DNA of 64,000 nt, taken from the NCBI GenBank assembly GCA_902712845.1, contig LR743504.1, positions 1,586,001 to 1,650,000 of the forward strand. Reading direction: 5' to 3'. Within the stretch, counting starts at the first letter, position 1. The number at the start of each line of letters is the position of its first letter. The DNA is from Methylobacterium bullatum (lineage in GTDB: Bacteria; Pseudomonadota; Alphaproteobacteria; Rhizobiales; Beijerinckiaceae). Both the position numbers and the translations under genes were made by a program. Below are positions 12,561 through 31,084 of this stretch, piece by piece. The notes below the pieces were generated by a model, which saw only the letters and a list, made by a program, of their open reading frames with translations, ran no database searches and was not told where the DNA came from.

Positions 12561-12637
12561 GCACCCGTAGCTCAGCTGGATAGAGCGTTGCCCTCCGAAG
12601 GCAAAGGTCACACGTTCGAATCGTGTCGGGTGCGCCA
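12561..12637 (+). tRNA. tRNA-Arg(CCG)
   Basis: Complete cloverleaf: acceptor arms GCACCCG and CGGGTGC followed by G-CCA, D-arm GCTCAGCTGGATAGAGC, anticodon stem TTGCC/GGCAA around loop CTCCGAA (anticodon CCG), T-arm ACACG-TTCGAAT-CGTGT. Its 3' half is the left attachment site of the 18-kb element, so the last 49 tRNA bases are supplied by the element's repeat copy. Confidence 0.97.
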
Positions 12638-12639
12638 AT
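12589..12639 (+). repeat. attL of the 18-kb integrated element
   Basis: These 51 bases, running from the anticodon arm to two bases past the CCA of tRNA-Arg, are repeated identically at 30562-30612. A direct repeat covering a tRNA 3' end, with an integrase gene just inside the far copy, is the classical attachment-site arrangement. Confidence 0.95.
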
Positions 12640-12685
12640 CTTTTCAATGTTTTAGCAGGTTTTGACGGCGCCTCTACGGTGGTTT

Positions 12686-13603: not shown

Positions 13604-13763
13604 CTAGTGCTGCTGCGGCGACTGTTGTGTCGCTACGCACCACGTTGGATCGAAGTCTTCCACGTCGTAGGCCGAGCGCTGGCCGCCGGCGGCATCTGCG
13701 CGACCCATCGCCATTGCAGCTGCCACCAGGGCGTCGATCGCCTGCGTGCTCTTCTTCAAGCTG
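13604..13763 (-). pseudogene. Detached 3' fragment of a second TerL gene
   Basis: Read on the minus strand this encodes KKSTQAIDALVAAAMAMGR... ending DVEDFDPTWCVATQQSPQQH-stop, closely matching the last 40 or so residues of the intact TerL (14883-16493) but with many base changes and a longer tail. It is not a recent copy: the two 3' ends have diverged. It abuts the truncated tail-tip gene, marking a recombination joint. The sequence from 13499 to 13603 is AT-rich and empty. Confidence 0.8.
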
Positions 13764-14235
13764 ATCGGGCGTCGAGAGCATCAGCCAGCACTCGCCCGCC
13801 CGGAGGGATCGGGCTGCTGATCGCCGCAGTCGCCAGCGCTGTCGGTACGCCCGCGGCCGCCGCTCCCGTGATACCGATGGCCCCGAGCAGGTTGGCCGCA
13901 TAGAACTGGCCCGCGGCGATGGCGGCCACAGTCACCGCGATCAGCAGGACGTTTTTCAAAGCGTCGCCCTGCGGGACGATTCGAATGAGGACGTGCATCC
14001 CGGCCTTGGCGCGGACGCGGTGCCAATTTTCGGCCTCAACGGGATGGCCGTTGACCGTGACGCGGACGTAGCTCGCTCCCATTTCGCGGGCCAGAGGCAG
14101 TGCCTCGTCTATCATCTCGGCAATGGTCTGGCCCGGCAGAACGGTGAGTTCGACGCGATCCCGCGTCGGGTCCAGGACGTGCGGCAGGCCGATGATGCGG
14201 ATGGGGTCCGGTGCGGTCTCAAGCTGCATCAGCAT
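13756..14235 (-). CDS. Truncated tail-tip (TipJ-like) protein, N-terminal stub
   Basis: 159 residues beginning MLMQLETAPDPIRIIGLPHVLDPTRDRVELTVLPGQ, a small ubiquitin-like beta domain with 'VRVTVNGHPVEAENWHRV', followed by 'PQGDALKNVLLIAVTVAAIAAGQFYAANLL', a hydrophobic Ala-rich stretch. This is how large TipJ-family host-specificity tail proteins start; the normal length is over 1000 residues. The frame ends a few codons into the TerL fragment, so the remainder has been lost. It overlaps the upstream gene by 17 bases. The product may be dead or may act as a small adaptor. Confidence 0.6.
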   Translation of the reverse strand: MLMQLETAPDPIRIIGLPHVLDPTRDRVELTVLPGQTIAEMIDEALPLAREMGASYVRVTVNGHPVEAENWHRVRAKAGMHVLIRIVPQGDALKNVLLIAVTVAAIAAGQFYAANLLGAIGITGAAAAGVPTALATAAISSPIPPGGRVLADALDARSA

Positions 14236-14869
14236 GCACTCCCACGATCGGCTCGTCCCAGCGGTGGACGATGTGGGTCGAGATGCCGTCTCGCGTCACG
14301 CTGGTGAGCTGGACGAATCCGCCGATGATGGCCTCCGGGTGTCGGCGCTGCATCTCGATGGCCCGCACGCCCCAACGGGCCGGATCAAGCTCGTCGCCTG
14401 ACGTGACATCGCCGTAGGCCTCATGGAATTCGGCCTGGATCTCCGGGGTGCTCGGCCACAGTGAACAATCGCCGTGGGTGAGTGCGACCCATGGTTCTGC
14501 GATGCGCTCGCAGGTGGTGACGCTGAAGGCGTCGGGCCCAGTGGTCTCGGAGAGGCCGGCGACTACTAGAAGCACTTCGGGCGTACCTTCACCGATGAAG
14601 ACGTGTGATGCCTCGCCCACCGCCTTGCTGAGCAGGGTCGGCGCCCACCGCTTAAGCTCATCGTAGGTGGTCACCGACAGCAGTAGGTTCGATAGAATCA
14701 GCGGCGACCACATCAGGCTGCCACTCGTCGCGATCACCGCGTTGAGGTGCGGGACCGGAAACGCCTTGCAGGTGCTGGCCGCGTAGCGCGAGCCGTCCCG
14801 GCACGTAGCGCCGTCGGTCAGCATGTGGACCGAATCGCTCTGCTTGATGACGTTGATGGCTGTCATGGT
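14219..14869 (-). CDS. Phage tail-tip-associated protein, possible Ntn-hydrolase fold
   Basis: The preferred start MTAINVIKQSDSVHMLTDGAT (14869 region; the frame is open to 14926) gives about 216 residues. Proteins of this look, with an N-terminal 'HMLTDGA' strand-turn and 'PHLNAVIATSGS', resemble HslV/Ntn-type folds and in alphaproteobacterial prophages sit beside tail-tip genes; that link is from memory. The function is unknown. Here it follows TerL directly and precedes the TipJ stub, with no tail tube, tape measure or chaperone genes between. Confidence 0.5.
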   Translation of the reverse strand, partial: TMTAINVIKQSDSVHMLTDGATCRDGSRYAASTCKAFPVPHLNAVIATSGSLMWSPLILSNLLLSVTTYDELKRWAPTLLSKAVGEASHVFIGEGTPEVLLVVAGLSETTGPDAFSVTTCERIAEPWVALTHGDCSLWPSTPEIQAEFHEAYGDVTSGDELDPARWGVRAIEMQRRHPEAIIGGFVQLTSVTRDGISTHIVHRWDEPIVGVHADAA

Positions 14870-14882
14870 CGTTCCTTCGGGC

Positions 14883-16493
14883 TCAGTTCGCGACGCACCA
14901 ATTCGGGTCGAAGTCTTCCTCGTCATAGGCGGAGCGCTGGCCGCCGGCCGCGTCGGCGCGGCCCATGGCCATTGCCGCCGCTACCAGGGCGTCGATCGCC
15001 TGCGTGCTCTTCTTCTTCGAGATGTACGGGAGGCCGGTGTCGCCATAGATCGGCACGGCGTTCTGAACGCACCATCGCAGGACCGGATGCCCGCCATGGC
15101 GGAATCGCCGGCCGATGATGGCCTTCTGCAGGTCGCTGTAGAACGGCCCCATGATGAGGGGGCGCTGCTGAACCTCGACGGCCGGGAGGTCGTCCTCGAT
15201 CAGCCGGCCCATCATCTTGGCCGCGAACTTCGGATCGAAGGCGATTTCCTGCACGTCGTAGAGACCGCACAACTCGCGTAGCTTCCCCTCGATCACGCCA
15301 TCGTCGATGAGGTCGCCGGGGATCACAGTGAGGTCACCGGCCTCCCGCCACTGGCGCAGAGCCACGTCCGGCAACTCATCGCAGCGACGCTTGAATGCCG
15401 TCTCCGGCAGGAAGGCCCAGGTCAGAGCACGGAAGCCGCCGGCCGGGTCGAGGAACACCGCCACGATGGCGGTCAGGTCGTAGCTCTTGGACAGGTCGAC
15501 CCCGATCCAGCACTGCTCGCCTACCAACTCTTCGGTGTCGATTTTTGCCCCGGCCTCGTCGTAGGTCGCCATCTCTATCCAGCCGGCGACCGAACCGTCC
15601 TGCCAGATGTTCAGGTGGGTCTGCTTGAACCCCTCCCGGAGCTGCGGAAGTTCGCGGGCGATGCGGGCTTCCGAGCGCAGCTCGTCGAGATCGGGGAAGC
15701 CGTCAGCGAGACCAGGGTTCACCGCATGCCACAGCGCCTCGTCCTGCCAATCCACCTTTGGATCGGCCTGGAACAGAATGGGCAGGAAAGACGGGTCGCG
15801 CTCTGGATCGTGGTGGCAGCGAAGGGCGTACTGAAACAGGTCGTAGCAGATGCCCTCGGCCCGCTCGCCGGCCGTCGTGATGATGACCGTAAGGGAGCCG
15901 GGCGTCTTCGAGGCGCCGGTTTTCAGGGCGTTCCAAAGCGAGAAGCCGCGCCAGACGTGAAGCTCGTCGGCTAGAACGAAGGTGGGTGTCTTGCCGTGCT
16001 GCGCGTCGCCCTCGGCGGAGATCGCGACATAGCTCGATCCGCTCCGGCGATGCTCGATACGGTTCTTCGTGTCGCGGATACGGGTCGCCCCAACGAGGCG
16101 ATCGTCGGCCCGGAGCATGTCCGAAGCTTCGTCGAAAGCGATGCGGGCCTGCGTCCGGTCACTCGCCGCGGCGACCACCTGCCCGCCCTGCCGTTGCTCG
16201 GGACCGATGGTGTGGCCGAGCGCCAGGACCGATGCCAGCGTAGTTTTGCGGGCGCCGCGCGGGAGGAGCGCGAACACCGTCGAGACCTGGCGCCGGCCGT
16301 CGTCGGTGGACGGCCCATAGATGCGCTCGATGATGCGACGCTGCCACCGGGCTTGCAGGGGGCGCTTGTCGGAGCCTGTAGTTTTCGGGTGCCGGAGGAT
16401 GTCGGCGAAACGCAGCATATTCGCAGCCCGCCCGTGCGCGTCCGGAATCACGCTGTCGTCAAATGCCCAGGTCGGAATAAGCGTCATAGCCAT
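14883..16493 (-). CDS. terL: Phage terminase large subunit (HK97/Terminase_1 type)
   Basis: 536 residues. The ATPase part has a P-loop variant LLPRGARKTT (about 76-85) and Walker B FVLADEL (about 172-178, D176/E177). The nuclease part has 'IGVDLSKSYDLTAIVAVF' and 'AFDPKFAAKMM', with acidic residues at the expected points. It packages DNA into the prohead and cuts concatemers. The gene overlaps the end of terS by about 35 bases. Full length and intact, unlike the stray 3' fragment at 13604-13763. Confidence 0.93.
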   Translation of the reverse strand: MAMTLIPTWAFDDSVIPDAHGRAANMLRFADILRHPKTTGSDKRPLQARWQRRIIERIYGPSTDDGRRQVSTVFALLPRGARKTTLASVLALGHTIGPEQRQGGQVVAAASDRTQARIAFDEASDMLRADDRLVGATRIRDTKNRIEHRRSGSSYVAISAEGDAQHGKTPTFVLADELHVWRGFSLWNALKTGASKTPGSLTVIITTAGERAEGICYDLFQYALRCHHDPERDPSFLPILFQADPKVDWQDEALWHAVNPGLADGFPDLDELRSEARIARELPQLREGFKQTHLNIWQDGSVAGWIEMATYDEAGAKIDTEELVGEQCWIGVDLSKSYDLTAIVAVFLDPAGGFRALTWAFLPETAFKRRCDELPDVALRQWREAGDLTVIPGDLIDDGVIEGKLRELCGLYDVQEIAFDPKFAAKMMGRLIEDDLPAVEVQQRPLIMGPFYSDLQKAIIGRRFRHGGHPVLRWCVQNAVPIYGDTGLPYISKKKSTQAIDALVAAAMAMGRADAAGGQRSAYDEEDFDPNWCVAN

Positions 16494-16854
16494 CCTCCCC
16501 GTCCGGCGGCTTGCCCGCCTTGTTGCGGGAGGTCGGCGTCAAGCCGAGTTCAGCGGCGAGTCGGCGGTGCTCCGTCATCATCTGGCCGAGCGTCTGGAAA
16601 GACGGATGCCGCTTGCCGTCGAGGGTGTCGCCCTCAGCCGCGATCGTGTTCTGGCACCGTCGGATGGTGCCGGCGGCGAGGCAGTAATTCTCGACCGTGC
16701 CCATGTCGGCGGCCGTGAGGATGCGGCGCGCGATGAGGCTGGGGAGGACGCGCTTCCATTCGTCCTTCGCCTCGGGTGGCAGCCAAGCCGGGGCGCGGGG
16801 GACGGATGCGAGACCGCCCTCAATGGCGCGAAGCTCGGGCTTGCGACCGCGCAT
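16459..16854 (-). CDS. terS: Phage terminase small subunit, P27 family
   Basis: Start MRGRKPELRAIEGG (16854), the usual opening of P27-family small terminases; the frame is open to 16893 but that extension overlaps the connector gene. 131 residues with 'PAWLPPEAKDEWKRVLPSLIARRILTAADMGTVENYCLAAGTIRRCQ' and 'HPSFQTLGQMMTEHRRLAAELGLTPTSR', both family hallmarks. It recognises the packaging site and hands DNA to TerL. In a satellite this protein would decide packaging specificity. Confidence 0.9.
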   Translation of the reverse strand: MRGRKPELRAIEGGLASVPRAPAWLPPEAKDEWKRVLPSLIARRILTAADMGTVENYCLAAGTIRRCQNTIAAEGDTLDGKRHPSFQTLGQMMTEHRRLAAELGLTPTSRNKAGKPPDGEDGYDAYSDLGI

Positions 16855-16855
16855 C

Positions 16856-17479
16856 TCAGCAACTCCACACCACGAAGTCGCGGAGGAGGTCATCAGCGGC
16901 CGACATGATGAGCCGGCTGGCGGTGTCAGAGACGGTCCACTGTGTCTCGCCCACGCCTTCGATCGACTCGCTGCGAAGCGAGAGATCCTGCGCAGTCAGG
17001 CCGTGAAGCTGCGTCGCCATGAGCAGGACGGCTTGCCGCACGGTGCCGAGTTCGGGGTCGCCGTCATCATAACCGGCCTCATACCGGATGCGGATGGCCT
17101 CCGGCCGACGCGGGGTGCTCGGCCAACGCCCGCCGATCGGCGCGACCGACCCGCCTGTCGTCCCGATCCCGAAGACGAAGTAGGAGGCGGGATCGACCGT
17201 CTGTTCCTCGCCGGCATCGTTCACGTAGACGATCGACGCGACTGAACGGAGCGGTGGCCAAGGCAACGCGATCTCGCGTTCATCGAAGCTGTCGAGCCGG
17301 GCTTCCAGGGTCTGTGCTCCGAAGGCGCGACCGATCCATGACCGCTCGATCCGGGACTGAGCCGCCGCCAGCAATCCGGCCACGCGAAGGTCGTCTGCCT
17401 CGGCGAGAACCGGAGCCTGGAGCTTCGCGTCGGGCACGTTGAAGAGCGCGGCCGGCGGGGTGAGGACGGTCACTCGCAT
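16856..17479 (-). CDS. Phage head-tail connector (gp6/gp8-like adaptor)
   Basis: 207 residues, all-helical ends with a beta middle: 'PVLAEADDLRVAGLLAAAQSRIERSWIGRAF', 'LPWPPLRSVASIVYVNDAGEEQTVDPASYFV' and 'IRIRYEAGYDDGDPELGTVRQAVLLMATQL', the pattern of the phiE125 gp8/HK97 gp6 connector family that sits under the portal and provides the tail docking surface. This is the last head gene present; no stopper or tail-completion gene is obvious. It overlaps the HNH gene end by 10 bases. Confidence 0.85.
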   Translation of the reverse strand: MRVTVLTPPAALFNVPDAKLQAPVLAEADDLRVAGLLAAAQSRIERSWIGRAFGAQTLEARLDSFDEREIALPWPPLRSVASIVYVNDAGEEQTVDPASYFVFGIGTTGGSVAPIGGRWPSTPRRPEAIRIRYEAGYDDGDPELGTVRQAVLLMATQLHGLTAQDLSLRSESIEGVGETQWTVSDTASRLIMSAADDLLRDFVVWSC

Positions 17480-17922
17480 GGCGGAAGCCCGGAGTTGCCC
17501 AATTCCAGTGTGTCTCGCGTCGTGGACCCCATGCGGTCCCGGCCCCCTCCGGTCGAAATTCCGATGGTGCCCCCCACCCTTCGACCGAAGCCGCCCTCGT
17601 GGCGCACTGCCTTGCGGCTGTTGCAGCCTCGCGCCATCGGCTGCCAGTTCGACCGAGACCAGAACAGGCGCTGATCGCCCTTGTGCGCCTCCTTATGGTC
17701 GATCACGCCGGCAGGCCGACCGCATCCGCAGGCACAAGCACGGTTCTCAGGAAGGGCGAGGAATGCCTTGCTCTCTCGGTCCCACTTCGAGGTGTAGCCA
17801 CGTTGGCGTGCGGTCGGGCGGGCGCGCTCGGCGGCCTGCGCACGCTGCACCTGGCAGGGGCAGCGCTCACCAGACGCGATCTTATGGCCGCATCCGCAGA
17901 TGCGTGGGGCACGCTGGCCCAT
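17470..17922 (-). CDS. HNH endonuclease, packaging-associated
   Basis: Start ATG 17922 (MGQRAPRICGCGHKIASGERCPC) gives 150 residues; upstream Met codons add unlikely sequence. Zinc-binding Cys pairs at the N-terminus and in 'CACGCGRPAGVIDHKEAHKGD', then 'NWQPMARGCNSRKAVRH', complete the HNH core. HNH nucleases next to terS/terL in HK97-type phages and satellites take part in terminase cleavage. The position beside connector and terminase genes supports that role. Confidence 0.88.
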   Translation of the reverse strand: MGQRAPRICGCGHKIASGERCPCQVQRAQAAERARPTARQRGYTSKWDRESKAFLALPENRACACGCGRPAGVIDHKEAHKGDQRLFWSRSNWQPMARGCNSRKAVRHEGGFGRRVGGTIGISTGGGRDRMGSTTRDTLELGNSGLPPCE

Positions 17923-18074
17923 GGCTCTACCTCTCATAAATGTGCCGGGCTCGCTGACCTTGACCGTTCCAACTGCTGGCTCATTCGAACCAGGGAGGCG
18001 CCACGGAGGTCTGCTTCTCGTTGTTGGGTTGCCCGGCGTTGCCCTCAAAGGACGGCGCCTCTCATGACCAGAGG

Positions 18075-18518
18075 TTAGGCCGCGACCGGCATCGTGCGGG
18101 CATTGCCCAAGATGGCGGTGGCGGCGATCGGTGTGCCCGTACCGTGGGTGCCGGCGAACGCGGCGCGCAGGCGGACGTAACGCTTCTGGCCGACGATCCC
18201 ATCGACATAGCCGAAGCGGTGCGTGGTCGGGTCCGGGTGCGCCGTGCGCTGGCTCAGGACGATGCCGCTGCCGGTGACCGTCGCACCGAGCACATTGGTT
18301 GAGACTACGGGCAACCAGATGGCGCCATCGTCGCTATGCTCCATCGTGAGATCGATCCGGTTGGCGCCGGTGAAGGTGATGCCTCCGGCGCCGATCTGCG
18401 CCACGAACGTCAGGGAGTCGTAGCCCGCGCGGTCGACAGTGATGGCAGCGGGCTCGGCGGCGAGGATGGCCGGGACGATGGCCGTCACGGCGCCCATGGA
18501 ATTGGTCTGATCGCGCAT
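18075..18518 (-). CDS. Phage head-associated protein of unknown function
   Basis: 147 residues, beta-rich and Ala/Thr/Gly-rich ('GYDSLTFVAQIGAGGITFTGANRIDLTMEHSDDGAIWLPV', 'QKRYVRLRAAFAGTHGTGTPIAATAILG'). It sits directly after the capsid gene with 12 bases between, the place usually held by a decoration or head-fibre protein, which is an inference from position and fold type only. The region 17923-18074 has no further gene. Confidence 0.6.
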   Translation of the reverse strand: MRDQTNSMGAVTAIVPAILAAEPAAITVDRAGYDSLTFVAQIGAGGITFTGANRIDLTMEHSDDGAIWLPVVSTNVLGATVTGSGIVLSQRTAHPDPTTHRFGYVDGIVGQKRYVRLRAAFAGTHGTGTPIAATAILGNARTMPVAA

Positions 18519-18530
18519 GTGCGTGTCTCC

Positions 18531-19676
18531 TCAGTTCGCCGCGACGCGCAGCTTGCGGATGGCCTCGGGGCGGACGACGGAGCCGGCGACGCGGCGGCGA
18601 GCCGTGAACCGGGTCTGGCCGTAGACGTCGAGGGTGTAGGGGTTGCGCAGGACAGACAGGCCGACCCGGTCATAGATGCGGTAGGCCGCTCCGATGTCGC
18701 CGTAGATCAGCGGCGTCGAGTTGGCGGCCACGTCCGGCATGTCGATGGACTCGACGACAGGTCGGCCGAGGATCGTGGCGGGCTGTCCGTTCTGGATGCC
18801 GGTCTGCCAGAGATAGTTGCCCTGGCCGTCCTTCAGCTTGCGGATGGTGGCGATGGTCGTGCCGTTCATCATCCACGCGCCGTTGTTCCGGTAGGCCGGC
18901 GGTAGGGAATAGAAGAGGTCGATCAGCGCATCGCCCGTGATGGACGTGGCCGCGCGAGTCGGGATGGTCGGAACTGTGGGATCGGACATGATGCCCAGCG
19001 GCTTCTTCACGCCGTCGCCGTTGACGAAGGCCGTGCCTTCCAGACGACCGAACTCCTCGGAGAAGTCGAAGGACAGTTCGGCCTCGATGTTGATGGCCGA
19101 GTCCTCGAGGAGCTGGTTGGAAACGTCGACGTAGCAGGACATCTCGTGAGCCTCGAGCGCGGTCATGCCGTAGGCCGGTTCGGTACGCGGGCGCTCCTCA
19201 ATCTCGTCCACCCACTGCGCCGTGATTCGACCGGTGCGACGGGGGATCTTGATCGAACCCACCGACATGCTGCCGACACGGGCCGCGGCACGCACTGGCG
19301 AGAATTGCACGATCTCCTTCAGCAGCTCGGTCGAGAACTCGCCCGGTGCCAGGAAGCCGCCCTTGGTATCATCGGCGACGCGGAGCGCTTTCACCTCGTC
19401 GGACGGCATCCGCTCAACGCCGTGACGGACGAAGCCAACGAAGGCCTTGCGCTCGATCGTCGGCTCGCCGTCCTTGCGTTCATGCGGACCGGGCCGATTG
19501 AGCTTCACCTCCAGGGCGTCGGCGCGGTCCTTCTGTGCCTTCAGTTCGGTGGACACCTCGCCCATGCGGGTCTCGAAGGTGGCCGTGAGGTCGGAGATTG
19601 CCTTCTCGACATCCGGGCCATCGCCCTCGGCCTTGGTCTCCAGCGCATCGAGCGCGTGGCGGCTGTGATAGTTCAT
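18531..19676 (-). CDS. HK97-family major capsid protein
   Basis: 381 residues. Residues about 1-90 form the charged coiled-coil delta (scaffold) domain removed by the protease ('LETKAEGDGPDVEKAISDLTATFETRMGEVSTELKAQKDRADALEVKLN'). The mature part has 'GGFLAPGEFSTELLKEIVQFSPVRAAARV', 'AYGMTALEAHEMSCYVDVSNQLLEDSAINIEAEL' and 'LPPAYRNNGAWMMNGTTIATIRKLKDGQGNYLW', all standard HK97-fold segments. It builds the icosahedral shell with the upstream portal and protease. It appears complete, so the element should be able to form its own capsids. Confidence 0.95.
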   Translation of the reverse strand: MNYHSRHALDALETKAEGDGPDVEKAISDLTATFETRMGEVSTELKAQKDRADALEVKLNRPGPHERKDGEPTIERKAFVGFVRHGVERMPSDEVKALRVADDTKGGFLAPGEFSTELLKEIVQFSPVRAAARVGSMSVGSIKIPRRTGRITAQWVDEIEERPRTEPAYGMTALEAHEMSCYVDVSNQLLEDSAINIEAELSFDFSEEFGRLEGTAFVNGDGVKKPLGIMSDPTVPTIPTRAATSITGDALIDLFYSLPPAYRNNGAWMMNGTTIATIRKLKDGQGNYLWQTGIQNGQPATILGRPVVESIDMPDVAANSTPLIYGDIGAAYRIYDRVGLSVLRNPYTLDVYGQTRFTARRRVAGSVVRPEAIRKLRVAAN

Positions 19677-19687
19677 CGTGTCTGTCC

Positions 19688-20224
19688 TCAGGAGCGCAGC
19701 GCCGCCGTGGCGCGATGGAGAGCGGCGACGATGCGGGACGCGCGCTCGGGATCGTGGATGGATTTGACGGCTGAGATCGCGGCCTTGTCGTTCGACCCGA
19801 AGGTGACGATGGAGATCTCGCGGAGGTCGACTTCCTCGACGTGCCGCACCGCCGCTTTCCGGTCGAAGCGGTCCCGCTTGGTGCGGAAGCCGATGGAGAG
19901 CTGATCGAGGGCGCCTTCCTTCATCAGGGCGTAGGTCTGAGCGGCGAGAGGCACTTCGCAGATCAGCCGGCCTTTGACGTGGAGGCCCTTGCTGTCCTCA
20001 GCCGCCGCGATCCAGACGCCAATCGGCTCGTCCTGCCGGTGCTGGCGCAGCATTTTCACTCGCGAGACCGGCCGTTCGGCCAGTGACGACTTAAAGGCGC
20101 CAACCGCGATCACGTCCCGGTGCGAGTCCATATGGCCGAAGACGGAGGCGTAGCCCTCGAACGTGCCGTCGTCGCCGATGGCCTTGGTGTCGAGGTGGAT
20201 GCCGGATGCGATCTCGATGTTCAT
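19688..20224 (-). CDS. HK97-family prohead protease
   Basis: Start MNIEIASGIHLDTKAIG (20224) overlaps the portal stop by 4 bases (ATGA), giving 178 residues. 'GTFEGYASVFGHMDSHRDVIAVGAF' and 'MLRQHRQDEPIGVW' contain the catalytic His region, and 'LDQLSIGFRTKRDRFD' carries the catalytic Ser of peptidase family U35/S78. It trims the capsid delta domain during maturation. Confidence 0.92.
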   Translation of the reverse strand: MNIEIASGIHLDTKAIGDDGTFEGYASVFGHMDSHRDVIAVGAFKSSLAERPVSRVKMLRQHRQDEPIGVWIAAAEDSKGLHVKGRLICEVPLAAQTYALMKEGALDQLSIGFRTKRDRFDRKAAVRHVEEVDLREISIVTFGSNDKAAISAVKSIHDPERASRIVAALHRATAALRS

Positions 20225-21471
20225 GCGACCACCCGCAGGTTGCTGGGCTGCTCGGTCGCGGGCGCATCGGCGCTTGGCGCGGCGACGCCCTGAGGCAGGT
20301 TGAGCTTGCTGCCGCCGTCGATGTCGGGCCGGTTCTCGACGGCGCGGCCTTCGTTCGCGGTAAGCCAGGGACCACCGATCGCCTTGTTGAGCGCGTCGAA
20401 GCGCTGAAGGATGTTGCCGCGCAGCAGGTCGTCCAACTGGAATTCGAGGAAGTGCGTGTCCCGCTCGGCTTCCGAGAACAGCACCCGCGAGAGCGCGCCT
20501 TCGATCAGGTCGCACCACGGGCGGATGCAATAGGCGACGAACTGAAGGCCGAGCTCTTCCGAGTTCGCGTGGGTCGCCCGGTCCATCTCGGCGAGCATGT
20601 GCGGCGGGACGCGGAAGACGCGGGCGATCTCAAGCACCTGGTGCCGGCGCAGTTCGATATACTGGAGGTCGACCGAGTTGAGCGTCAGGCCGGTGTAGCT
20701 GGCCGACCGATCCATGACCGCCGTGCCGCCGGAGCGACCACCGCCGTGGACGGCATTCCAGACCGCGACCCGGTTCTTGATCTCCACCGGGCTCAGCTTA
20801 TCGGCGAAGCTCAGAATGCCGCTCGGCCGGGCACCGTTCCCGAACAGTCGGGCTCCGTGCTTCTCCAGGGTCGAAGCGAATCCGATTGCCTCGCGCGCCA
20901 GCGAGATCAGCGAGACCGGCGCACCGTCGCTCGGGACCGGCACAAGGTGCACCACATCGTCCCACTGATAGGTACGGTCGCCACCGGTCGTGCGGCTCAG
21001 CTTGTAGGTCGGTTCGCCGGTAGCTGGATCGTACTCGACGCGCATCCCACCAGGGGCGATCCGGTGAAGCTCGCGCACGGTGTCGCCGCCCCGCGCCGCG
21101 ACCGCGAAGGCCTGCCCGTGACGGATCGCATCGAAGATCAGGCGGAGCTTGAACTCGTAGGGGCCGAGCCACGGGGCGGGCCGGTCCAGCACCTTTGCGG
21201 CGGCATGATCCCGGTCGCGCTGGCGGGAGCCATCGGCGCCCCGGCGATAGACGTGGATGGGAAGGCTGCTGAGCGTCTCGGCGATCGTGCGAACTGCAGC
21301 GACGACAGCCGGGACGCGAAGGGCGCTATCGGGACCGACCGTTTCGCCGGAAGCAGTGGCCGTGCCAGCGCCGAATAGGGAAAGCAGCTCGGCGCCAGGG
21401 GCATCGAGCGTCCAGGCCTTCTCTTCGAGCTGCTCTGCCTTCCGACGGGACTTCTTCGACATCGACATCAC
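20221..21471 (-). CDS. HK97-family phage portal protein
   Basis: 416 residues with 'ALRVPAVVAAVRTIAETLSSLPIHVYRR', 'LIFDAIRHGQAFAVAARGG', 'LHRIAPGGMRVEYDPATGEPTYKL', 'ILEIARVFRVPPHML'-type sequence and 'FVAYCIRPWCDLIEGALSRVLF', all portal signatures. It forms the dodecameric DNA gate at one capsid vertex. It is the first gene of the head operon here (portal, protease, capsid, HNH, connector, terS, terL), which differs from the common terS-terL-portal-protease-capsid order. Confidence 0.93.
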   Translation of the reverse strand: MMSMSKKSRRKAEQLEEKAWTLDAPGAELLSLFGAGTATASGETVGPDSALRVPAVVAAVRTIAETLSSLPIHVYRRGADGSRQRDRDHAAAKVLDRPAPWLGPYEFKLRLIFDAIRHGQAFAVAARGGDTVRELHRIAPGGMRVEYDPATGEPTYKLSRTTGGDRTYQWDDVVHLVPVPSDGAPVSLISLAREAIGFASTLEKHGARLFGNGARPSGILSFADKLSPVEIKNRVAVWNAVHGGGRSGGTAVMDRSASYTGLTLNSVDLQYIELRRHQVLEIARVFRVPPHMLAEMDRATHANSEELGLQFVAYCIRPWCDLIEGALSRVLFSEAERDTHFLEFQLDDLLRGNILQRFDALNKAIGGPWLTANEGRAVENRPDIDGGSKLNLPQGVAAPSADAPATEQPSNLRVVA

Positions 21472-22004
21472 GCGTGAAACCGTGACGATTGCCGATCCTC
21501 ACGCTAGATGAAACAAGCAATCTGCCTGACGCCCCATCCAGATTTTCCGTGGGTTACTGTGGTTTACCGTTGGGCGATTGTCATAAGCTCGAATTGTTTT
21601 GAGCGTTGGTTAGGCGACCACCGTGGCGGGGATACGGCCGGAGAGTTTTACGGCTTTCTCGTAAAACTACAGTCGCGCATCGCGGAGGCCGGTTCGACCG
21701 ACGCAGATTTGCACCGGTCGGATTGGAGACCTTCCGGAAGTTTCCTTGCAGGCCAGATAGGACAACGCAATTTTGCGTCGTGCTCTGGTTGTCGACTGCT
21801 TTGAGGGTTTCTGCCCGATCTGGCGGAAACCAGAACCTCCGATGATCCACCCAGCGCGGGGAACCAACTAGTGAGCTCCCCCGATCCGGGGAGCGCAAAT
21901 TGCCGGTCCCCAAAACGGGGGAGCGGCCACGGACCGGATAAGCCATTGAAAAGCAAAGGCTGAAAATTCAGCCGCAGCGGCGAGGCCTGAGTTTTCAGGG
22001 CTGC
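21472..22004. other. Non-coding divider between replication and head modules, with two hairpins
   Basis: About 530 bases with no convincing gene; frames on both strands here lack family features. It carries two GC hairpins: GCTCCCC/GGGGAGC at 21875-21894 and TCCCC-AAAAC-GGGGGA near 21913-21930, sharing the CTCCCC/GGGGAG core. It is the only long gap inside the leftward operon and is a reasonable place for a late promoter, a replication origin or a packaging site; which of these cannot be told. Confidence 0.5.
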
Positions 22005-22919
22005 TCATCGGCCTGTCCCCGTCATCAAGGCGAGCGCCGGCCGCTCCGCCGGATGCCGGATGCCGAACTCGGCCAGGATGCTTGGCGGAACCTTCGTCCG
22101 TGGGTCGTCGGGCGGTTCGGTGCGCTGCTGCCAAGGCCAGTGGCCGCCGCGCGCTTTCCAGGCCCGGACCCGCTCGCGCCAGACGTCGGCCGGGATCTCT
22201 GCCGCTGCAGAGGGCTCGCCGGTACTCTGGGCATAATCCCGCCACCGCCGCTGATGCAGCCAGGCATCGGCGGTCTTGACGAACTCGGTGCCGGCCTTAC
22301 CGATGCGCTCCTGCTCGGCGGCGTAGGCCTTGGCGCCAGCGATGATCTCGGCAGGTGTGGCTCCCCGTCGTCGAGCCTCGAGCCAGCGCTTCCGAGCGTA
22401 GGTTGTCGGGAACGCGACGTTGCGTTTCGGGTAGGCCGATTTGAACTCGGCGAAGCCTTCGGGATCCTCGTCCCCTGTGGGGACTATAGGGGATTCTTTA
22501 GCTTTAGCTTTAGCTGCTTTCGTTTCGCTTTCGTTTTCCTTTCCAATTGCGGAACCTAATGCCTCCCCCTGATCCTGTAATTCCAATGACTTAGGACGTC
22601 CGCCCTGCCTCCCCGCGGCGCGTTTCCGCTCGACTTTTTCGCTAACGAATTGATGCTCGCGAGCGACCTGATCGTTGCTCCAATTACCTTTTTGGAGCGC
22701 CCAATTGGCCAGCACGATTGGCTTCAGAACGGCCCAGCGCTTCAGAGTAGTCCCGAGCATGCGGGCGAACCGAGCGTCATCATCCGGCAGACAGCAGCCC
22801 GGCGAGCGCCACGCGAAGATCTGCAGGCGGAAGTAGGCGCCGGCCTCCTCGTTCGTCATGTGAGCCGTGTCGGCGATGTGCCTGTCGACGCCTACCGGCA
22901 TGGTCGGGAGCGAGCTCAT
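22005..22919 (-). CDS. DUF1376 (YdaU-type) replication-associated protein
   Basis: 304 residues. The N-terminus (MPVGVDRHIADTAHMTNEEAGAYFRLQIFAWRSPGCCLPDDDARFARMLG) is the DUF1376 winged-helix-like domain of phage replication initiators such as YdaU. A basic linker 'KVERKRAAGRQGGRPKSLE' and a Lys/Ala-rich spacer follow, then a C-terminal helical domain with 'WLHQRRWRDY'. Such proteins recruit helicase to the origin. It overlaps the dnaB-like gene by 4 bases (ATGA). Confidence 0.8.
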   Translation of the reverse strand: MSSLPTMPVGVDRHIADTAHMTNEEAGAYFRLQIFAWRSPGCCLPDDDARFARMLGTTLKRWAVLKPIVLANWALQKGNWSNDQVAREHQFVSEKVERKRAAGRQGGRPKSLELQDQGEALGSAIGKENESETKAAKAKAKESPIVPTGDEDPEGFAEFKSAYPKRNVAFPTTYARKRWLEARRRGATPAEIIAGAKAYAAEQERIGKAGTEFVKTADAWLHQRRWRDYAQSTGEPSAAAEIPADVWRERVRAWKARGGHWPWQQRTEPPDDPRTKVPPSILAEFGIRHPAERPALALMTGTGR

Positions 22920-24322
22920 CGAGCCACCTCCGCCAGCACGTTGCAGCCGACGTCGCAGAAGCAGGTGATTCGGATCGTGGGGCCCGAACGCTGCTTCAGA
23001 ATTTCGATCTCGAGCTCATTCTGACAGTTGAAGAGCCGGATCTCCTCGTCGTCTGTCCGGTCGGCCTTATGCTCGAGGTAGTAGGCCTCCCGGTACAGGC
23101 CGAGCACCACGTCGGCGTCCTGCTCAATCGACCCGGATTCGCGCAGGTCTGAGAGCTGCGGACGCTTGTCCTGCCGCTTCTCAACCTCGCGGTTGAGCTG
23201 CGAGAGGCCGACCACGGGAATGCCGAGTTCCTTGGCCAGCCCCTTTAGACCCGTGGTGATCTCGGTCATCTCCTGGACTCGGTTGCCCTGGTAGCGTTTG
23301 GAGGGGCGGATCAGGCCGATGTGGTCGATAATGATGGCCGCGAGCGGGATACCTCTACGCTCGGCGCGCAGACGCATCTGACGGGCCCGTGCCGCGATCT
23401 GCGCCAGCGTCAGGCCGGACTGCGGCTCGATCCAGAGCGGGATGTCGGCACAGGTCTTCTCGGCTTCCTGCAGGCGCCACATGGCTTCCGGTGAAAGGCT
23501 GCGAGCTTCGGCGATGGCGCGATAGGTAATCGGCTCCTGCGAGCGCGGATCGTAAGCTGCGGCGGCGAGCACCCGCTCCGAGAGCTCATCGGCCCCCATC
23601 TCGAGCGAGAAGAAGCCCACGGCACCGGCGCGTCGAGCGGCAGCGAGAGCGATGTGCAAGGCGACTGTCGATTTGCCCATGCCGGGCCGACCGGCGAGCA
23701 CGATGAACTGTGCCGGCCGCATGCCGAGGGTGGCGGTATCGAGCTTGGGCAGACCGTAGGGGGCGCCACGGGGGGCGAGGCCCTGCCGGGTCTGCTCGAC
23801 CCGAGCGAGGACACTGGCGACGCTACTCACCAACGTTACGCGGCGGGCGTGCTCGGCGAGGCCAGCGCTGGCTACCTCGTCGAGCTGCTCAATCATGTGC
23901 GTGGCATAGTCGGCGGGGCTGTGAACCGAACCGTCCGTCATCCGCGCTACCGCGGCCTGCGCCGTCTCCAGCACCGTCCGCATCCGAGCAGCGTCGGCAA
24001 TCATCCGGGCGTACCCAGGCGCACCGACGACTGTGATGGCCTCAGATGCCAGGCGAGCGAGGTAGGCGCCGGCGGTCAATCCACCGAGGTCGTCGTCACC
24101 GAGGGCGGCCCTCATCAGCTTCCAGTCGATGGCGTCGCCGGCATCGCGGCGCTCGCACATCACACCGAAGATGTGCCGATGCACGTCCTCGAAGAAGTCC
24201 TCGGCCCGAACGTGATCGCGAGCCCGATCCAGAGCCTCCGGGTTGATTAGGATCGCACCGAGCAAAGCCTGCTCCGCTTCGATCGTGCTCGGCGGCACGA
24301 CGTCATGAATGACCGGCATCAT
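22916..24322 (-). CDS. Replicative DNA helicase, DnaB family
   Basis: 468 residues. The N-terminal DnaB domain ('STIEAEQALLGAILINPEALDRARDHVRAEDFFEDVHRHIFGVM') is followed by the RecA-like core with Walker A GRPGMGKST (about 208-216), 'LSEIDELSERVLA'-type helices, Walker B 'AAIIIDHIGLIRP', and 'LKGLAKELGIPVVGLSQLNREVEKRQDKRPQLSDLRESGSIEQDADVVLGLYR'. It unwinds DNA for element replication. Together with the DUF1376 protein it gives the element its own replication module. Confidence 0.93.
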   Translation of the reverse strand: MMPVIHDVVPPSTIEAEQALLGAILINPEALDRARDHVRAEDFFEDVHRHIFGVMCERRDAGDAIDWKLMRAALGDDDLGGLTAGAYLARLASEAITVVGAPGYARMIADAARMRTVLETAQAAVARMTDGSVHSPADYATHMIEQLDEVASAGLAEHARRVTLVSSVASVLARVEQTRQGLAPRGAPYGLPKLDTATLGMRPAQFIVLAGRPGMGKSTVALHIALAAARRAGAVGFFSLEMGADELSERVLAAAAYDPRSQEPITYRAIAEARSLSPEAMWRLQEAEKTCADIPLWIEPQSGLTLAQIAARARQMRLRAERRGIPLAAIIIDHIGLIRPSKRYQGNRVQEMTEITTGLKGLAKELGIPVVGLSQLNREVEKRQDKRPQLSDLRESGSIEQDADVVLGLYREAYYLEHKADRTDDEEIRLFNCQNELEIEILKQRSGPTIRITCFCDVGCNVLAEVAR

Positions 24323-27353: not shown

Positions 27354-28124
27354 GTGAAAGGGCTTCGCTTGCCATCTTCCGTACATGTTCCGCAGTGCCG
27401 ATCATCCAGCTTCGCGATTAATTTCCCGAGGCAGACGAACGTGCGCCGTTTGGCATATAATTTTGAAGATGTTCTCAGTAGCGATTACAGCCAAGCGAAC
27501 GTTTTTTCAGTTGCTGACGAAGCTGATCCGCAGCTGCCACGCATTGCATTTGCTTCTAAGCACGGTTTTTCACAGATCTATATAAGCCAAGTGAATCTTT
27601 CGCTTATTGTGAATTACTCCCGAGATGAATGGGCATTTGATCATCACAGAAGGTCGTCTTATCTTCTGCCTCGCATTGAGCGTTTATTCGATTTATTGCG
27701 TTTAATGCCGGGCGTTGATGCCGCATATTCTGGTGTTACTCATAATTATTGGATTGACAGCCTTCTTAGTGATCTTGATATCATAGAGAGGCTTCAAAAG
27801 TTCTATTTTGGAAAAGTCGACGCCGCTCTTGATGACGTAATAATTCGATTTTCTCATGTTGTTGCAGATAGATTTTACAGCAATGTTGTAGTTCAGACTA
27901 GTAGAGAGTGGCCGCACATAGATCCGTTATCGATGGCGCGTCTTCCGAAGGCCTCAGCTGTTCGGCGGGGTATAGCAATCGAACACGATCTGAATGATAG
28001 GTTCGCTTATAACGAAATTCCTGAATTTCATTCTAGTATGGATTCTGCTAGTAAAATGATGGAAGTTGTCAATAGAATTGATAGTGATGTTCTTGGCGCT
28101 GTCTCGGAGGCTTTGAATGGCTAA
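27354..28124 (+). CDS. Cargo operon gene 1: TIGR04255-like protein
   Basis: GTG start, 256 residues, strongly AT-rich compared with the rest. The beta-rich N-half ('SQIYISQVNLSLIVNYSRDEWAFDHH') and C-terminal 'IEHDLNDRFAYNEIPEF...MMEVVNRIDSDVLGAVSEAL' follow the general plan of TIGR04255-type proteins, which are sporadic and mobile; the match is by eye and weak. First of three overlapping genes between the RHH gene and the integrase, the usual cargo slot. Possibly a sensor or scaffold of a defence or interference system. Confidence 0.55.
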   Translation: MKGLRLPSSVHVPQCRSSSFAINFPRQTNVRRLAYNFEDVLSSDYSQANVFSVADEADPQLPRIAFASKHGFSQIYISQVNLSLIVNYSRDEWAFDHHRRSSYLLPRIERLFDLLRLMPGVDAAYSGVTHNYWIDSLLSDLDIIERLQKFYFGKVDAALDDVIIRFSHVVADRFYSNVVVQTSREWPHIDPLSMARLPKASAVRRGIAIEHDLNDRFAYNEIPEFHSSMDSASKMMEVVNRIDSDVLGAVSEALNG

Positions 28125-28464
28125 TATTGTCGCGAATCGACTTAGCAATTCTATTGCCAGCACCGCTATGGTTGCTCTGATGAATTTTTCGTTTCCTCAA
28201 GCGAATGGTTTGATAGAGCGCGCTCCCAGCGTTGCTATACCGACCATGCCGCAGCGTCGACGTTATAGTACAGCCAACGCAATTGTTAGTGTCTTCTCGC
28301 TCCCGTTTGATGCATTTGATATCATGCCCGACTACGCGAGTTTGGGCCTGTATTCAACGGATGCAATTCCTGAGATAAGTATTACTCCAGACTTTATGGG
28401 TTTTGTTCTAGAATCACCCCAACTGGCTGGTGCGTACTTGCAGGAGTATGGCGATCTCAAATGA
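28117..28464 (+). CDS. Cargo operon gene 2: small protein of unknown function
   Basis: 115 residues, AT-rich. The start codon lies 8 bases inside gene 1 and the stop overlaps gene 3 by 4 bases, so the three are translationally coupled. The N-terminal 'NIVANRLSNSIASTAMVALMNFSFPQ' is a possible amphipathic or weak membrane segment. No motif is recognised. Confidence 0.55.
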   Translation: MANIVANRLSNSIASTAMVALMNFSFPQANGLIERAPSVAIPTMPQRRRYSTANAIVSVFSLPFDAFDIMPDYASLGLYSTDAIPEISITPDFMGFVLESPQLAGAYLQEYGDLK

Positions 28465-29087
28465 TTATCGACAGCGCCTACGTCAATCCAGCTGACCAAC
28501 TCGCTAATTTTTGGCCACAACTGCAGCAGGGCGATATTGTTGACAATATTCCTTTCACTCTTGCGGATCTGTCAAAATTAGGCCTAGTAAGTGATCAAAA
28601 AACCTCGGGAGTAGATGTGTCTTTATCGGCTATCCCTGCCGAAGCACAACTGATAGCTGCCCAATTTGAGATACTTCCAGGAATAATAGTCTCTCAAACC
28701 TGTGATTTAGAGCGATGCGACAGGCCCATAATGATTGCGCCGTTGAGGGCCTATAGCTACCTTTACAAAACTAAAACGATAGGTTCGAAAGCATTTTTTG
28801 ATCATATTAAGCAGCTTGCAAATCCTGGAAAGTTTCCCGTTGGTTTCCCAATGCCGCCGCTTGTTTCCCTGAATTTCAGCTTGGATTACACAATTGCTGA
28901 TCTTCATATGATAACAACGCTGGCTCCCGCAAGCCGGAATGCTTTGATTTACCGAAGAAAAGCTCGCCTTGGACCAGACTTACTGTCCTTATTTCAAGAA
29001 AGAGTTGCAAATTTCTTTGGTCGTGTTGCGGCCCCGGAGGGTATATATTTCAGTGAGAATCACATTAGAGAGCAATTTGCAGTTTAG
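28461..29087 (+). CDS. Cargo operon gene 3: 'QGDIV...SQTCDLER' family protein
   Basis: 208 residues, AT-rich, overlapping gene 2 (ATGA). It contains 'LQQGDIVDNIPFTL' and 'LPGIIVSQTCDLERCDRPIMIAPL', a combination I recall from scattered proteins in mobile and defence-like loci, with Cys and Asp in a conserved 'SQTCD' turn. That could be catalytic or metal-binding, but no reaction is known to me. It ends 59 bases before the convergent integrase stop. Confidence 0.55.
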   Translation: MIIDSAYVNPADQLANFWPQLQQGDIVDNIPFTLADLSKLGLVSDQKTSGVDVSLSAIPAEAQLIAAQFEILPGIIVSQTCDLERCDRPIMIAPLRAYSYLYKTKTIGSKAFFDHIKQLANPGKFPVGFPMPPLVSLNFSLDYTIADLHMITTLAPASRNALIYRRKARLGPDLLSLFQERVANFFGRVAAPEGIYFSENHIREQFAV

Positions 29088-29145: not shown

Positions 29146-30390
29146 TTACTTGTGGTGCGCGCGAAGGTTTGCAAGGATCTGATTGGCAACGCGCCTAGCG
29201 GCAGCGAGCAAGACCGCGTCAAGATGGTGTACGTATCGGCTCGTAACGGTACTGCCGGCATGGCCGAGCATCGCGCCAATGGTAGAGTCGCTGTAGCCGA
29301 GATCGCCGGCGGTGGAAGCGAACGAGTGCCGCAGCGTATGAGCTGTGACGCCCTCCAGCCCAGCGCGGGCCATGATCCGTTCAAGAGCGTCGTCGAGGCT
29401 GGCGAAGGCACCGAGGCCGCGCGCCGCTGGCAGGACGTAGGTGGAGCTTGCCGTCCGCGGTAGGCCATCCAACAGGGACAGTACTGCGCTGCCGATCGGC
29501 CGAACCGATGCGCCTTCCTTCGTGTCTTCAAGCCTGAGGGAGGGGCCAGACCGATCCACCTCGGACCAGCGCAACTTAACTATCTCACCGAGACGGCATC
29601 CGGTGAGGGCGAGCAGGCGGACGCCAGCAGCAGCTTGCCAGCGCTCCTCCGCTCCCGCCTCCATCTCTGCGATGGCTTTGCCAAGGGCGCCGTACTCCTC
29701 GACGGTGAGACGGCGCGTGCGCTTCTTGTCGGCCGGCTTCCGTACCCCTGCCGCCGGGTTAATCGTGATGATGCGCTCGGAGATCGCGAAGCTCATGATG
29801 CCGCCGAGGAGGCCGACAGTGCGTGCTGCGGTGCCCGCGCCGCCTTCGACGACTGCCTTGCCCCTGAGGCCAGTCTTTACGATCCCCGCGGTCTTGCCGG
29901 CCTGCACGTCGCGCACGAACCGTTGAACGTCCGGCTGCGTCAGGTCGACGACGAGCTTCTTGCCCAACAGCGGCTTGATGTGTCGCTCGATCCGTCCCCG
30001 GTCGACGTAGAGAGTGGAGGCCTTCTTCGCTTTGCCGCCCTTTCCCATCACGAGGCCCGCGTCGGTAGCCTCAAGGTAACGGTCGCATAGCTCGGCAACG
30101 GTGAGAGAGCTTCGACGGGTAGCGCGCTCTTCGGCTGGGTCTTCACCGCGGATCACGTCGCCCAGGGTGACGATGGCGAGCTTGCGGGCCTCCTCGACCG
30201 TGATCTTGCCGTGTGGGCCGAGCGACATGCGCCGCCTGGTGCCGCCCTTGGTCCGATAATCGGCGTAGTAGACCCGCTTGCCGCTGGGGAAGACGCGGAC
30301 GCCGAAGCCCGGCAACTCGCTGCACCAGACGAAGAACGTGGCCTCGCGCGGAGCTGCAGCGTCGACGACTTTTTTGGTGAGCTTTGGCAT
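29146..30390 (-). CDS. int: Tyrosine-type integrase of the 18-kb element
   Basis: 414 residues: an N-terminal DUF4102-like arm-binding domain ('LTKKVVDAAAPREATFFVWCSELPGFGVRVFPSGKRVYYADYRTKGG'), a SAM-like core-binding domain, and a catalytic domain with Arg in TGCRLGEI (about 262), HTLRHSFAS (about 346-354), GHAGSTVTSRYVHH (Tyr about 384). All catalytic residues are present. It points inward from attR; its promoter region contains the right pair of arm-type sites, so it is probably autoregulated. Confidence 0.95.
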   Translation of the reverse strand: MPKLTKKVVDAAAPREATFFVWCSELPGFGVRVFPSGKRVYYADYRTKGGTRRRMSLGPHGKITVEEARKLAIVTLGDVIRGEDPAEERATRRSSLTVAELCDRYLEATDAGLVMGKGGKAKKASTLYVDRGRIERHIKPLLGKKLVVDLTQPDVQRFVRDVQAGKTAGIVKTGLRGKAVVEGGAGTAARTVGLLGGIMSFAISERIITINPAAGVRKPADKKRTRRLTVEEYGALGKAIAEMEAGAEERWQAAAGVRLLALTGCRLGEIVKLRWSEVDRSGPSLRLEDTKEGASVRPIGSAVLSLLDGLPRTASSTYVLPAARGLGAFASLDDALERIMARAGLEGVTAHTLRHSFASTAGDLGYSDSTIGAMLGHAGSTVTSRYVHHLDAVLLAAARRVANQILANLRAHHK

Positions 30391-30561: not shown

Positions 30562-30612
30562 TGCCCTCCGAAGGCAAAGGTCACACGTTCGAATCGTGTC
30601 GGGTGCGCCAAT
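30562..30612 (+). repeat. attR of the 18-kb integrated element
   Basis: Perfect 51-bp copy of 12589-12639. The bases before it do not form a tRNA 5' half, so this copy is the displaced chromosomal tRNA end; the original tRNA terminator follows at 30632-30660. Confidence 0.95.
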
Positions 30613-30631
30613 TATTTTCTTCGACGGACGC

Positions 30632-30660: not shown

Positions 30661-30744
30661 CTGTTGTGTCCTCTGCTTACTGGAGATCGGCCCAAGTAGG
30701 CACTTGGTCAGCAAGCCAGGGGGGTGATTTTTTCGAATGACTGT

Positions 30745-31046
30745 TTAGTTCCGGCATTCGATGGATTGGATCGCTGATGAAGCGATCCGTCTCCAAAGTC
30801 CGCCCGTTGCAGATGAACACGTATGGCGTGAGCCCCTTGAGGGTTTTGAGGCGGCGGCCGACGTTGTAGGCGGCGACAAAGCTTGGTCTTGCGATCGGCT
30901 GTCGTGGTTGGCGTCTTCCATTTGGCCGCGGTCTTCGGGTTGATCCCGTAGCGCTTGGCCAGTGCCCTCAGGCTTTTCGCCTCTGCTGTATCGCCCGACG
31001 GATCGCCTCTGTGGTCGTGAGGCTTGCGGGGGGAACCTCGCCCATA
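30745..31046 (-). pseudogene. Internally deleted IS481-type transposase
   Basis: The start at 31046 gives MGEVPPASLTTTEAIRRAIQQ, then SLRALAKRYGINPKTAAKW, the IS481 N-terminal helix-turn-helix. The frame then jumps to C-terminal sequence 'AAYNVGRRLKTLKGLTPYVFICNGRT' and 'DPIHRMPELN-stop' (frame-shifted). The central DDE catalytic core is missing, so the gene is dead. Confidence 0.8.
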
Positions 31047-31084
31047 GTGCCTCCTTCCACGGCTGCGAAAAGATCGCACCATCA

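What the first reader, a model, noticed from the sequence alone, without database searches (positions are those of the whole stretch)
27354..29087. Three overlapping low-GC cargo genes between regulator and integrase
The genes overlap by 8 and 4 bases, are far more AT-rich than the element, and occupy the accessory slot where satellites carry anti-phage or interference genes. Gene 3 has a 'QGDIV...SQTCDLER' signature, gene 1 is TIGR04255-like by eye, and gene 2 is a small unknown. Neither composition nor architecture matches a named defence system known to me, so this could be an undescribed one.
Basis: partly seen in the sequence, partly recalled or inferred. Interest (0 to 1): 0.65.

Follow-up and report, generated by a model that had tools for sequence, protein, structure and literature searches.

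The report
Three-part toxin-antitoxin-like module in satellite
Three overlapping AT-rich genes on a phage-like island look like a bacterial toxin-antitoxin unit with a third, uncharacterised partner protein; the same partner-first layout occurs in distant bacteria with interchangeable toxins, which points to a wide, so far undescribed family of self-poisoning systems.

Summary
Three + strand ORFs overlap by 8 and 4 bases (27354-28124, 28117-28464, 28461-29087) and at 44.6% GC are the most AT-rich stretch of the window. They lie between an RHH-type regulator and a tyrosine integrase, inside an ~18-kb element in tRNA-Arg with HK97-type head genes but almost no tail genes. The unit recurs: g1-g2-g3 in 18 loci across phyla, and six more g1 loci with another third gene. 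True TIGR04255 genes head similar operons. The third gene is variously the g3 family, PemK/MazF, a PIN nuclease, a zeta toxin or protease-like. The predicted g3 structure matches MazF/CcdB toxins; the g1 model is confident and TBP-like; g2 is small and poorly conserved. The slot beside the same integrase in congeners carries PD-Lambda-1, AbiE and a SocA/Panacea antitoxin. Best reading: a tripartite toxin-antitoxin-like module (g3 toxin, g2 antitoxin, g1 stabiliser/sensor or autoregulator), serving abortive defence, element maintenance or both. Toxicity, neutralisation and phage protection are inferred, not shown. No paper in the searched library mentions TIGR04255. New variant of a known kind.

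The parts
27354..28124 (+). g1: 256-aa TBP-like-fold protein, third component of the module; paired with the TIGR04255 family by operon position and partners
   Evidence: phrog_22817 5e-19; 24% identity, E 3e-22 to a Leptospira phage protein; 19 genome loci; AlphaFold pLDDT 92.5; TBP Z 9.2, viral TBP hits
28117..28464 (+). g2: 115-aa middle gene, proposed antitoxin/linker
   Evidence: present between g1 and the third gene in all loci read, but poorly conserved (mean column identity 19%); hydrophobic N-terminal stretch in most relatives, weaker and central in this copy
28461..29087 (+). g3: 208-aa proposed toxin with a predicted MazF/CcdB fold, QGDI...SQTCD motif
   Evidence: A6 alignment; AlphaFold pLDDT 65, pTM 0.61; Foldseek top hits MazF; VIA Z 9.7 to S. 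aureus MazF, 109 of 115 residues
27043..27267 (+). RHH-like element regulator, left border of the cargo slot
   Evidence: RHH_1 0.0043, below cut-off; phrog_4738 repressor 0.0056
29146..30390 (-). tyrosine integrase, right border of the cargo slot
   Evidence: Phage_integrase 1.1e-16; phrog_1 6.3e-61
12589..12644 (.). attL: 3' part of tRNA-Arg(CCG) (12561-12637)
   Evidence: 56-nt direct repeat, 96%; ARAGORN
30562..30617 (.). attR: second copy of the tRNA-Arg 3' end
   Evidence: direct repeat
13756..24322 (-). element body: TerS/TerL, head-tail adaptor, HNH, major head protein, protease, portal, primosomal protein, DnaB-like helicase
   Evidence: PHROG hits; protease read from the ORF at 19688-20530 by eye

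Best explanation
The trio is a three-component toxin-antitoxin-like module carried in the cargo slot of a tailless, capsid-encoding phage satellite or remnant. g3 is the toxin, with a MazF/CcdB-type fold, and would stop growth by cutting RNA or poisoning another core target. g2 is a short, labile antitoxin whose C-terminal part is matched to the toxin and whose N-terminal part is usually hydrophobic. g1 is a TBP-fold protein that holds the pair in check, either by binding and stabilising g2 like a dedicated chaperone or sensor, or by repressing the operon. When g1 or g2 is lost or diverted, for example during infection by a competing phage, g3 is freed and growth stops. Shown: the conserved operon, swapping of the third gene among toxin-like families, the MazF-type predicted fold of g3, the TBP-like predicted fold of g1, and the defence/TA nature of the slot in related elements. 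Inferred: toxicity, neutralisation, g1's role, the trigger and any phage protection.
For: (1) Operon conservation across Alpha- and Gammaproteobacteria, a Leptospira phage, a cyanobacterium and Firmicutes. In 295 genomes of one order g1 is in 4 and g3 in 2, both g3 directly behind g1. (2) Third gene swaps. With g1: g3 in 18 loci, PIN nuclease in 3 (Pfam 1.3e-16, 3.2e-9 and a split ORF at 1.6e-4 just below cut-off), aspartyl-protease-like in 2 (2.5e-4 below cut-off, and 0.065), a CATFV-motif protein in 1. With TIGR04255: g3 (E 4e-29, 1e-28, 2e-24, 3e-13), PemK/MazF (1.1e-18), zeta toxin (3.1e-12), CATFV (E 2e-36 to the g1-linked one). (3) g3 structure: the first 38 Foldseek hits are MazF chains except one type III TA toxin; Z 9.7 over 109 of 115 residues; a relative has a weak PemK hit (0.16). 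(4) g1 model pLDDT 92.5 with a TBP-like arrangement. (5) Slot in congeners: PD-Lambda-1 2e-165, AbiEi 3e-68 with AbiEii 4.5e-98, SocA_Panacea 3.5e-20.
Against: The g3 model is only moderately confident (pLDDT 65), the best Foldseek E is 4.7e-3 and the Pfam PemK cut-off is not reached. The arginine of the MazF 'RP' motif, seen in the L033 MazF, is not conserved in g3, so RNase activity is unproven. g2 has no recognised antitoxin domain, and searches with middle-gene C-terminal parts from PIN and MazF loci found no classical antitoxin. The g1 fold match (Z about 9, rmsd about 5) is near the method's background, and there is no sequence link to SecB. No defence function was tested. Several TIGR04255 third genes remain of unknown family.
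Confidence: 0.66

Rival explanations
1. Regulator-antitoxin-toxin module, like paaR-paaA-parE or omega-epsilon-zeta: g1, encoded first and with a DNA-binder-like TBP fold, is the transcriptional autorepressor; g2 alone neutralises g3.
For: Gene order regulator-antitoxin-toxin; TBP-like fold by Foldseek/VIA and viral TBPs; g2 shows no DNA-binding domain; a TIGR04255 relative stands before a zeta toxin. The resemblance to the named systems is from general knowledge.
Against: A fold resemblance at Z about 9 does not show DNA binding. One TIGR04255 operon has an HTH domain in the middle gene (L034), which would make a separate repressor redundant. The hydrophobic N-terminus of most g2 proteins is unexplained.
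Confidence: 0.25
2. Canonical toxin-antitoxin-chaperone (TAC) system with g1 a SecB-like chaperone and g2 carrying a chaperone-addiction sequence.
For: Three-gene layout; variable toxins, as in TAC (PMC5105189, PMC11618068); hydrophobic N-terminal stretch in most g2 proteins.
Against: No SecB signal: no Pfam/NCBIfam hit, and profile comparison is no better than shuffles (27 of 60 at or above real). In the described TAC systems the addiction sequence is C-terminal. Fold searches point to TBP.
Confidence: 0.08
3. Pure addiction/maintenance cassette of the mobile element with no anti-phage role.
For: Sits on an integrated element next to its integrase; TIGR04255 relatives sit on plasmids.
Against: The same slot holds PD-Lambda-1 and AbiE, both linked to phage defence, in congeners. 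The two roles are not exclusive.
Confidence: 0.3
4. Unrelated cargo genes that merely travel together, with no joint function.
For: g2 is very poorly conserved.
Against: Fixed order and overlap or near-contact in the g1 loci across phyla, and third-gene replacement in register.
Confidence: 0.03

Closest known systems
TIGR04255 family operons (NCBIfam sporadTIGR04255)
   Same: About 250-aa first gene, small middle gene, variable third gene; shares the g3 and CATFV partner families with g1
   Different: Window g1 does not hit the model; only weak profile similarity (score 23.8, above 150 of 150 block shuffles). No paper in the searched library names the family
MazF/PemK/Kid and CcdB toxins
   Same: Predicted fold of g3; a true PemK/MazF takes the same third position in L033
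   Different: g3 is longer (about 180-220 aa against about 110), carries an invariant QGDI and a conserved C(D/H) motif, lacks the conserved RP arginine, and is below the Pfam PemK cut-off
Toxin-antitoxin-chaperone systems (M. tuberculosis TAC, CmdTAC)
   Same: Three genes, interchangeable toxins, an extra protein that may stabilise the antitoxin; CmdTAC is anti-phage (PMC11618068)
   Different: No SecB relation found for g1; third component encoded first; hydrophobic stretch of g2 mostly N-terminal rather than a C-terminal ChAD (PMC5105189)
PD-Lambda-1, AbiE, Panacea (PanAT)
   Same: Occupy the equivalent cargo slot next to homologous integrases in the same genus
   Different: Unrelated proteins
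Capsid-forming phage-inducible chromosomal islands
   Same: Integrase, tRNA att site, replication genes, HK97-type head and packaging genes, hardly any tail genes
   Different: Helper dependence and induction untested; a tail-fibre J fragment is present, so a decayed prophage is possible

Membership tests
Type II (protein-protein) toxin-antitoxin systems | Adjacent genes, one encoding a protein of a toxin family | tested here: met
   MazF/CcdB-type predicted fold of g3; PIN, PemK/MazF and zeta toxins in the same third position of related operons
Type II (protein-protein) toxin-antitoxin systems | The partner gene encodes a recognised antitoxin | tested here: inconclusive
   g2 has no family hit; C-terminal searches gave nothing informative
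Type II (protein-protein) toxin-antitoxin systems | Toxicity of g3 and its neutralisation | not testable with these tools
   Needs expression assays
MazF/PemK | MazF-like fold | tested here: met
   Z 9.7, rmsd 3.0, 109 of 115 residues; model pLDDT only 65
MazF/PemK | Score above the Pfam PemK_toxin cut-off | tested here: not met
   No hit for window g3; 12.6 bits for the L013 relative against a cut-off of 23.1
MazF/PemK | Conserved arginine of the RP motif | tested here: not met
   Not conserved in the 17-sequence g3 alignment
TIGR04255 | Score above the NCBIfam cut-off of 30 bits | tested here: not met
   No hit for window g1
TIGR04255 | Detectable distant profile similarity | tested here: inconclusive
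   hhalign score 23.8, E 0.01; 150 of 150 block shuffles lower, best 20.3
Toxin-antitoxin-chaperone (TAC) | SecB-like third component by sequence | tested here: not met
   No SecB model hit; profile match no better than shuffles
Toxin-antitoxin-chaperone (TAC) | SecB fold of g1 | tested here: inconclusive
   SecB not among the listed structural matches, which excludes nothing
Toxin-antitoxin-chaperone (TAC) | Antitoxin depends on the chaperone | not testable with these tools
   Needs co-expression experiments
Known anti-phage systems (PADLOC) | Match to a described defence protein | tested here: not met
   Only g1 to a type II restriction model at 17.8 bits, E 0.0003; g2 and g3 none
Capsid-forming satellite | Head and packaging genes without a tail module, integrase and att site | tested here: met
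   only a 158-aa tail-fibre J fragment
Capsid-forming satellite | Induction by, and use of tails of, a helper phage | not testable with these tools
   Needs a helper phage

The most novel reading that the evidence does not exclude
g1 and TIGR04255 are two branches of one superfamily of saddle-fold proteins that act as phage- or stress-sensing chaperones, onto which bacteria have repeatedly mounted different antitoxin-toxin pairs (MazF-fold, PIN, zeta, protease), making a large undescribed class of tripartite abortive-infection systems analogous to, but evolutionarily separate from, SecB-based TAC systems.
Probability: 0.33. Interest if true: 0.85.

Novelty: new variant of a known kind. Interest (0 to 1): 0.62.

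Why it matters
TIGR04255 genes occur in 18 of 200 sampled genomes of the window's phylum, yet no paper in the searched library mentions the family. Placing it and the g1 family as the constant part of tripartite toxin-antitoxin-like operons gives many anonymous genes a testable role, adds a divergent MazF-fold toxin family with a new motif, and offers a second, non-SecB route to three-part TA control. If the modules respond to phage, they would form a modular defence class that defence-gene catalogues do not list.

Tried and rejected
Housekeeping or tail family: no support in Pfam, NCBIfam or PHROGs. Type II restriction enzyme: the single PADLOC match of g1 (17.8 bits) was set aside because the model is confidently a TBP-like saddle and the family shows no conserved nuclease motif by eye. 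SecB: profile comparison no better than shuffles; SecB was also not among the listed structural matches, which proves nothing. Direct TIGR04255 membership of g1: no model hit, single-sequence hhalign nothing. Internal repeat of g1: halves not similar by profile. Solved relatives by sequence: none for g1, g3 or TIGR04255. C-terminal parts of middle genes as classical VapB/MazE antitoxins: no informative hits. Plasmid and phage collections with window g1 and g3: only the Leptospira phage for g1. Viral contigs: only the same Leptospira element.

Full report
Observation. The trio is the most AT-rich 1.7 kb of the window. The element around it is delimited by a 56-nt direct repeat, identical over its first 51 bases: the 3' end of tRNA-Arg(CCG) at 12589-12644 and a copy at 30562-30617, next to the integrase. 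Inside are terminase subunits, head-tail adaptor, HNH nuclease, major head protein, portal, a primosomal protein and a DnaB-like helicase. The only tail match is a 158-aa J fragment. This fits a capsid-forming satellite or a decayed prophage of about 18 kb.

The trio is a conserved unit. Window g1 finds, in the phage collection, a Leptospira phage protein (24.5%, E 8e-15) followed by a 99-aa and a 216-aa gene. The latter shares the QGDI...SxxCD core with g3 (26% over 85 residues, E 2e-4 for the single comparison). Stenotrophomonas sp. SY1 (L003/L011) has the same three genes. A scan of species genomes with the g1 alignment gave 19 loci from Firmicutes, deltaproteobacterial and Thermodesulfobacteriales MAGs, a cyanobacterial MAG and Stenotrophomonas. 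With the window, the Leptospira phage and three new loci, I count 24 distinct g1 loci. All have a small middle gene and a third gene on the same strand.

The third gene is exchangeable. Among the 24 loci it is g3 in 18, a PIN nuclease in three (L009 1.3e-16, L008 3.2e-9, L007 a split ORF at 1.6e-4 just below the cut-off), aspartyl-protease-like in two (L064 2.5e-4 below the cut-off, L065 0.065), and a 227-aa protein with a 'CATFV' motif in one (L024). In 295 genomes of one order, g1 occurs in four and g3 in two; both g3 genes lie directly behind g1. In 289 genomes of the window's class, g3 occurs in three: the window itself, L027 behind a true TIGR04255 gene, and L028 fused to a response-regulator-like part.

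Link to TIGR04255. Eighteen of 200 phylum genomes hold TIGR04255. Reading those loci shows the same pattern in many of them: TIGR04255, a small variable gene, a variable third gene. A g3 profile finds g3 behind TIGR04255 in L032 (4e-29), L035 (1e-28), L040 (2e-24) and L027 (3e-13). L033 carries a true PemK/MazF there (1.1e-18). L031 carries the CATFV protein (34% identity, E 2e-36 to the g1-linked one). A Vibrio plasmid record has TIGR04255, a 179-aa gene, then a zeta toxin. By sequence the two first-gene families are only weakly alike: hhalign score 23.8, E 0.01, collinear over the N-terminal half, above all 150 block-shuffled controls. So I treat g1 as a probable but unproven sister of TIGR04255, not a member.

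Structures. The g1 model is confident (pLDDT 92.5, pTM 0.88): two beta-alpha-beta3-alpha halves giving eight main strands. The best structural matches are TATA-binding proteins (Z 9.2, rmsd 5.1, 170 residues; guanido kinases tie), and viral TBPs appear in the viral library. Z near 9 is only slightly above the method's background, so this is a fold resemblance and not evidence of DNA binding. The g3 model is moderate (pLDDT 65, pTM 0.61), yet its matches are one-sided: the leading Foldseek hits are MazF (E 4.7e-3, probability 1.00), with CcdB lower down, and VIA gives Z 9.7 to S. aureus MazF over 109 of its 115 residues, with the 50 listed entries MazF, Kid or CcdB-type toxins. A relative of g3 also gives a weak PemK hit (E 0.16). 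The MazF arginine of the RP motif is not conserved; instead Q23-G24-D25-I26 and C81 are invariant, so the biochemical target is open.

The middle gene. g2 is poorly conserved. Most relatives have a hydrophobic stretch near the N-terminus (17-residue hydropathy about 1.1 to 2.1); in the window copy the strongest stretch is central (1.37 at residue 55). In L007 and L009, two PIN loci from different phyla, the C-terminal parts of g2 are alike (35% over 40 residues), as expected of a toxin-matched antitoxin tail, but I found no classical antitoxin relative.

Slot. Beside homologous integrases in the genus, the cargo position next to the integrase holds PD-Lambda-1 in L091 (2e-165), AbiEi/AbiEii in L097 (3e-68, 4.5e-98), a SocA/Panacea antitoxin in L093 (3.5e-20), and low-GC unknowns in L088, L092 and L094. 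This supports a defence/TA cargo slot. It is guilt by association, from ten relatives of which some carry no such cargo.

Mechanism. I commit to a tripartite toxin-antitoxin-like module: g3 the toxin, g2 the labile antitoxin, g1 the controlling third component. For g1 I keep two options. As stabiliser or sensor, g1 would be analogous to the chaperone of TAC systems, where a captured phage protein frees the toxin in CmdTAC (PMC11618068) and the antitoxin tail is chaperone-addicted (PMC5105189). As autorepressor, it would be analogous to three-gene regulator-antitoxin-toxin operons (general knowledge). SecB homology was tested and not found by sequence. Toxicity, neutralisation and defence all remain to be tested.

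Novelty. No curated family or defence model names the trio, and no paper in the searched open library mentions TIGR04255; preprints and most subscription papers were not covered. I rate it a new variant of a known kind.

Noticed in passing
L028:1462-2568: The g3 domain is fused to a weak response-regulator-like N-terminal part, beside a histidine-kinase-type ATPase and what look like a Dcm-type methyltransferase and a Vsr-type nuclease; possibly a separate signalling or defence use of the g3 domain.
   Followed up: partly
L002:3736-8446: In the Leptospira phage the trio stands directly before a His-Xaa-Ser (hxsA/D/B/C) peptide-modification cluster.
   Followed up: no
L030, L038, L039, L045, L046, L047: A frequent TIGR04255 operon type has a middle gene with a 'GWDGY'-like motif and often a third gene of 130-165 aa, both without any family; another candidate toxin-antitoxin pair.
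   Followed up: no
L048:1575-1946: Third gene behind TIGR04255 looks HEPN-like by eye ('SRAYYAAL'); only a sub-cut-off DUF5440 match in Pfam.
   Followed up: no
L024:2627-3310 and L031:2756-3400: Unnamed third-gene family with 'CHIGIIY'/'HVGIVY' and 'LTCATFVxAVF' motifs, possibly a cysteine hydrolase, shared by g1 and TIGR04255 operons.
   Followed up: partly
window 13630-13757 and 14888-15015: 128-nt direct repeat (88%) at the packaging end of the element, around a tail-fibre J fragment.
   Followed up: no
window 30700-31450: Scrambled transposase-like frames outside attR, probably an insertion-sequence remnant (by eye).
   Followed up: no
L092:3322-4872 and L088:3668-4810: Low-GC unknown single genes of 516 and 380 aa in the same cargo slot of related elements; candidates for new defence genes.
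   Followed up: no
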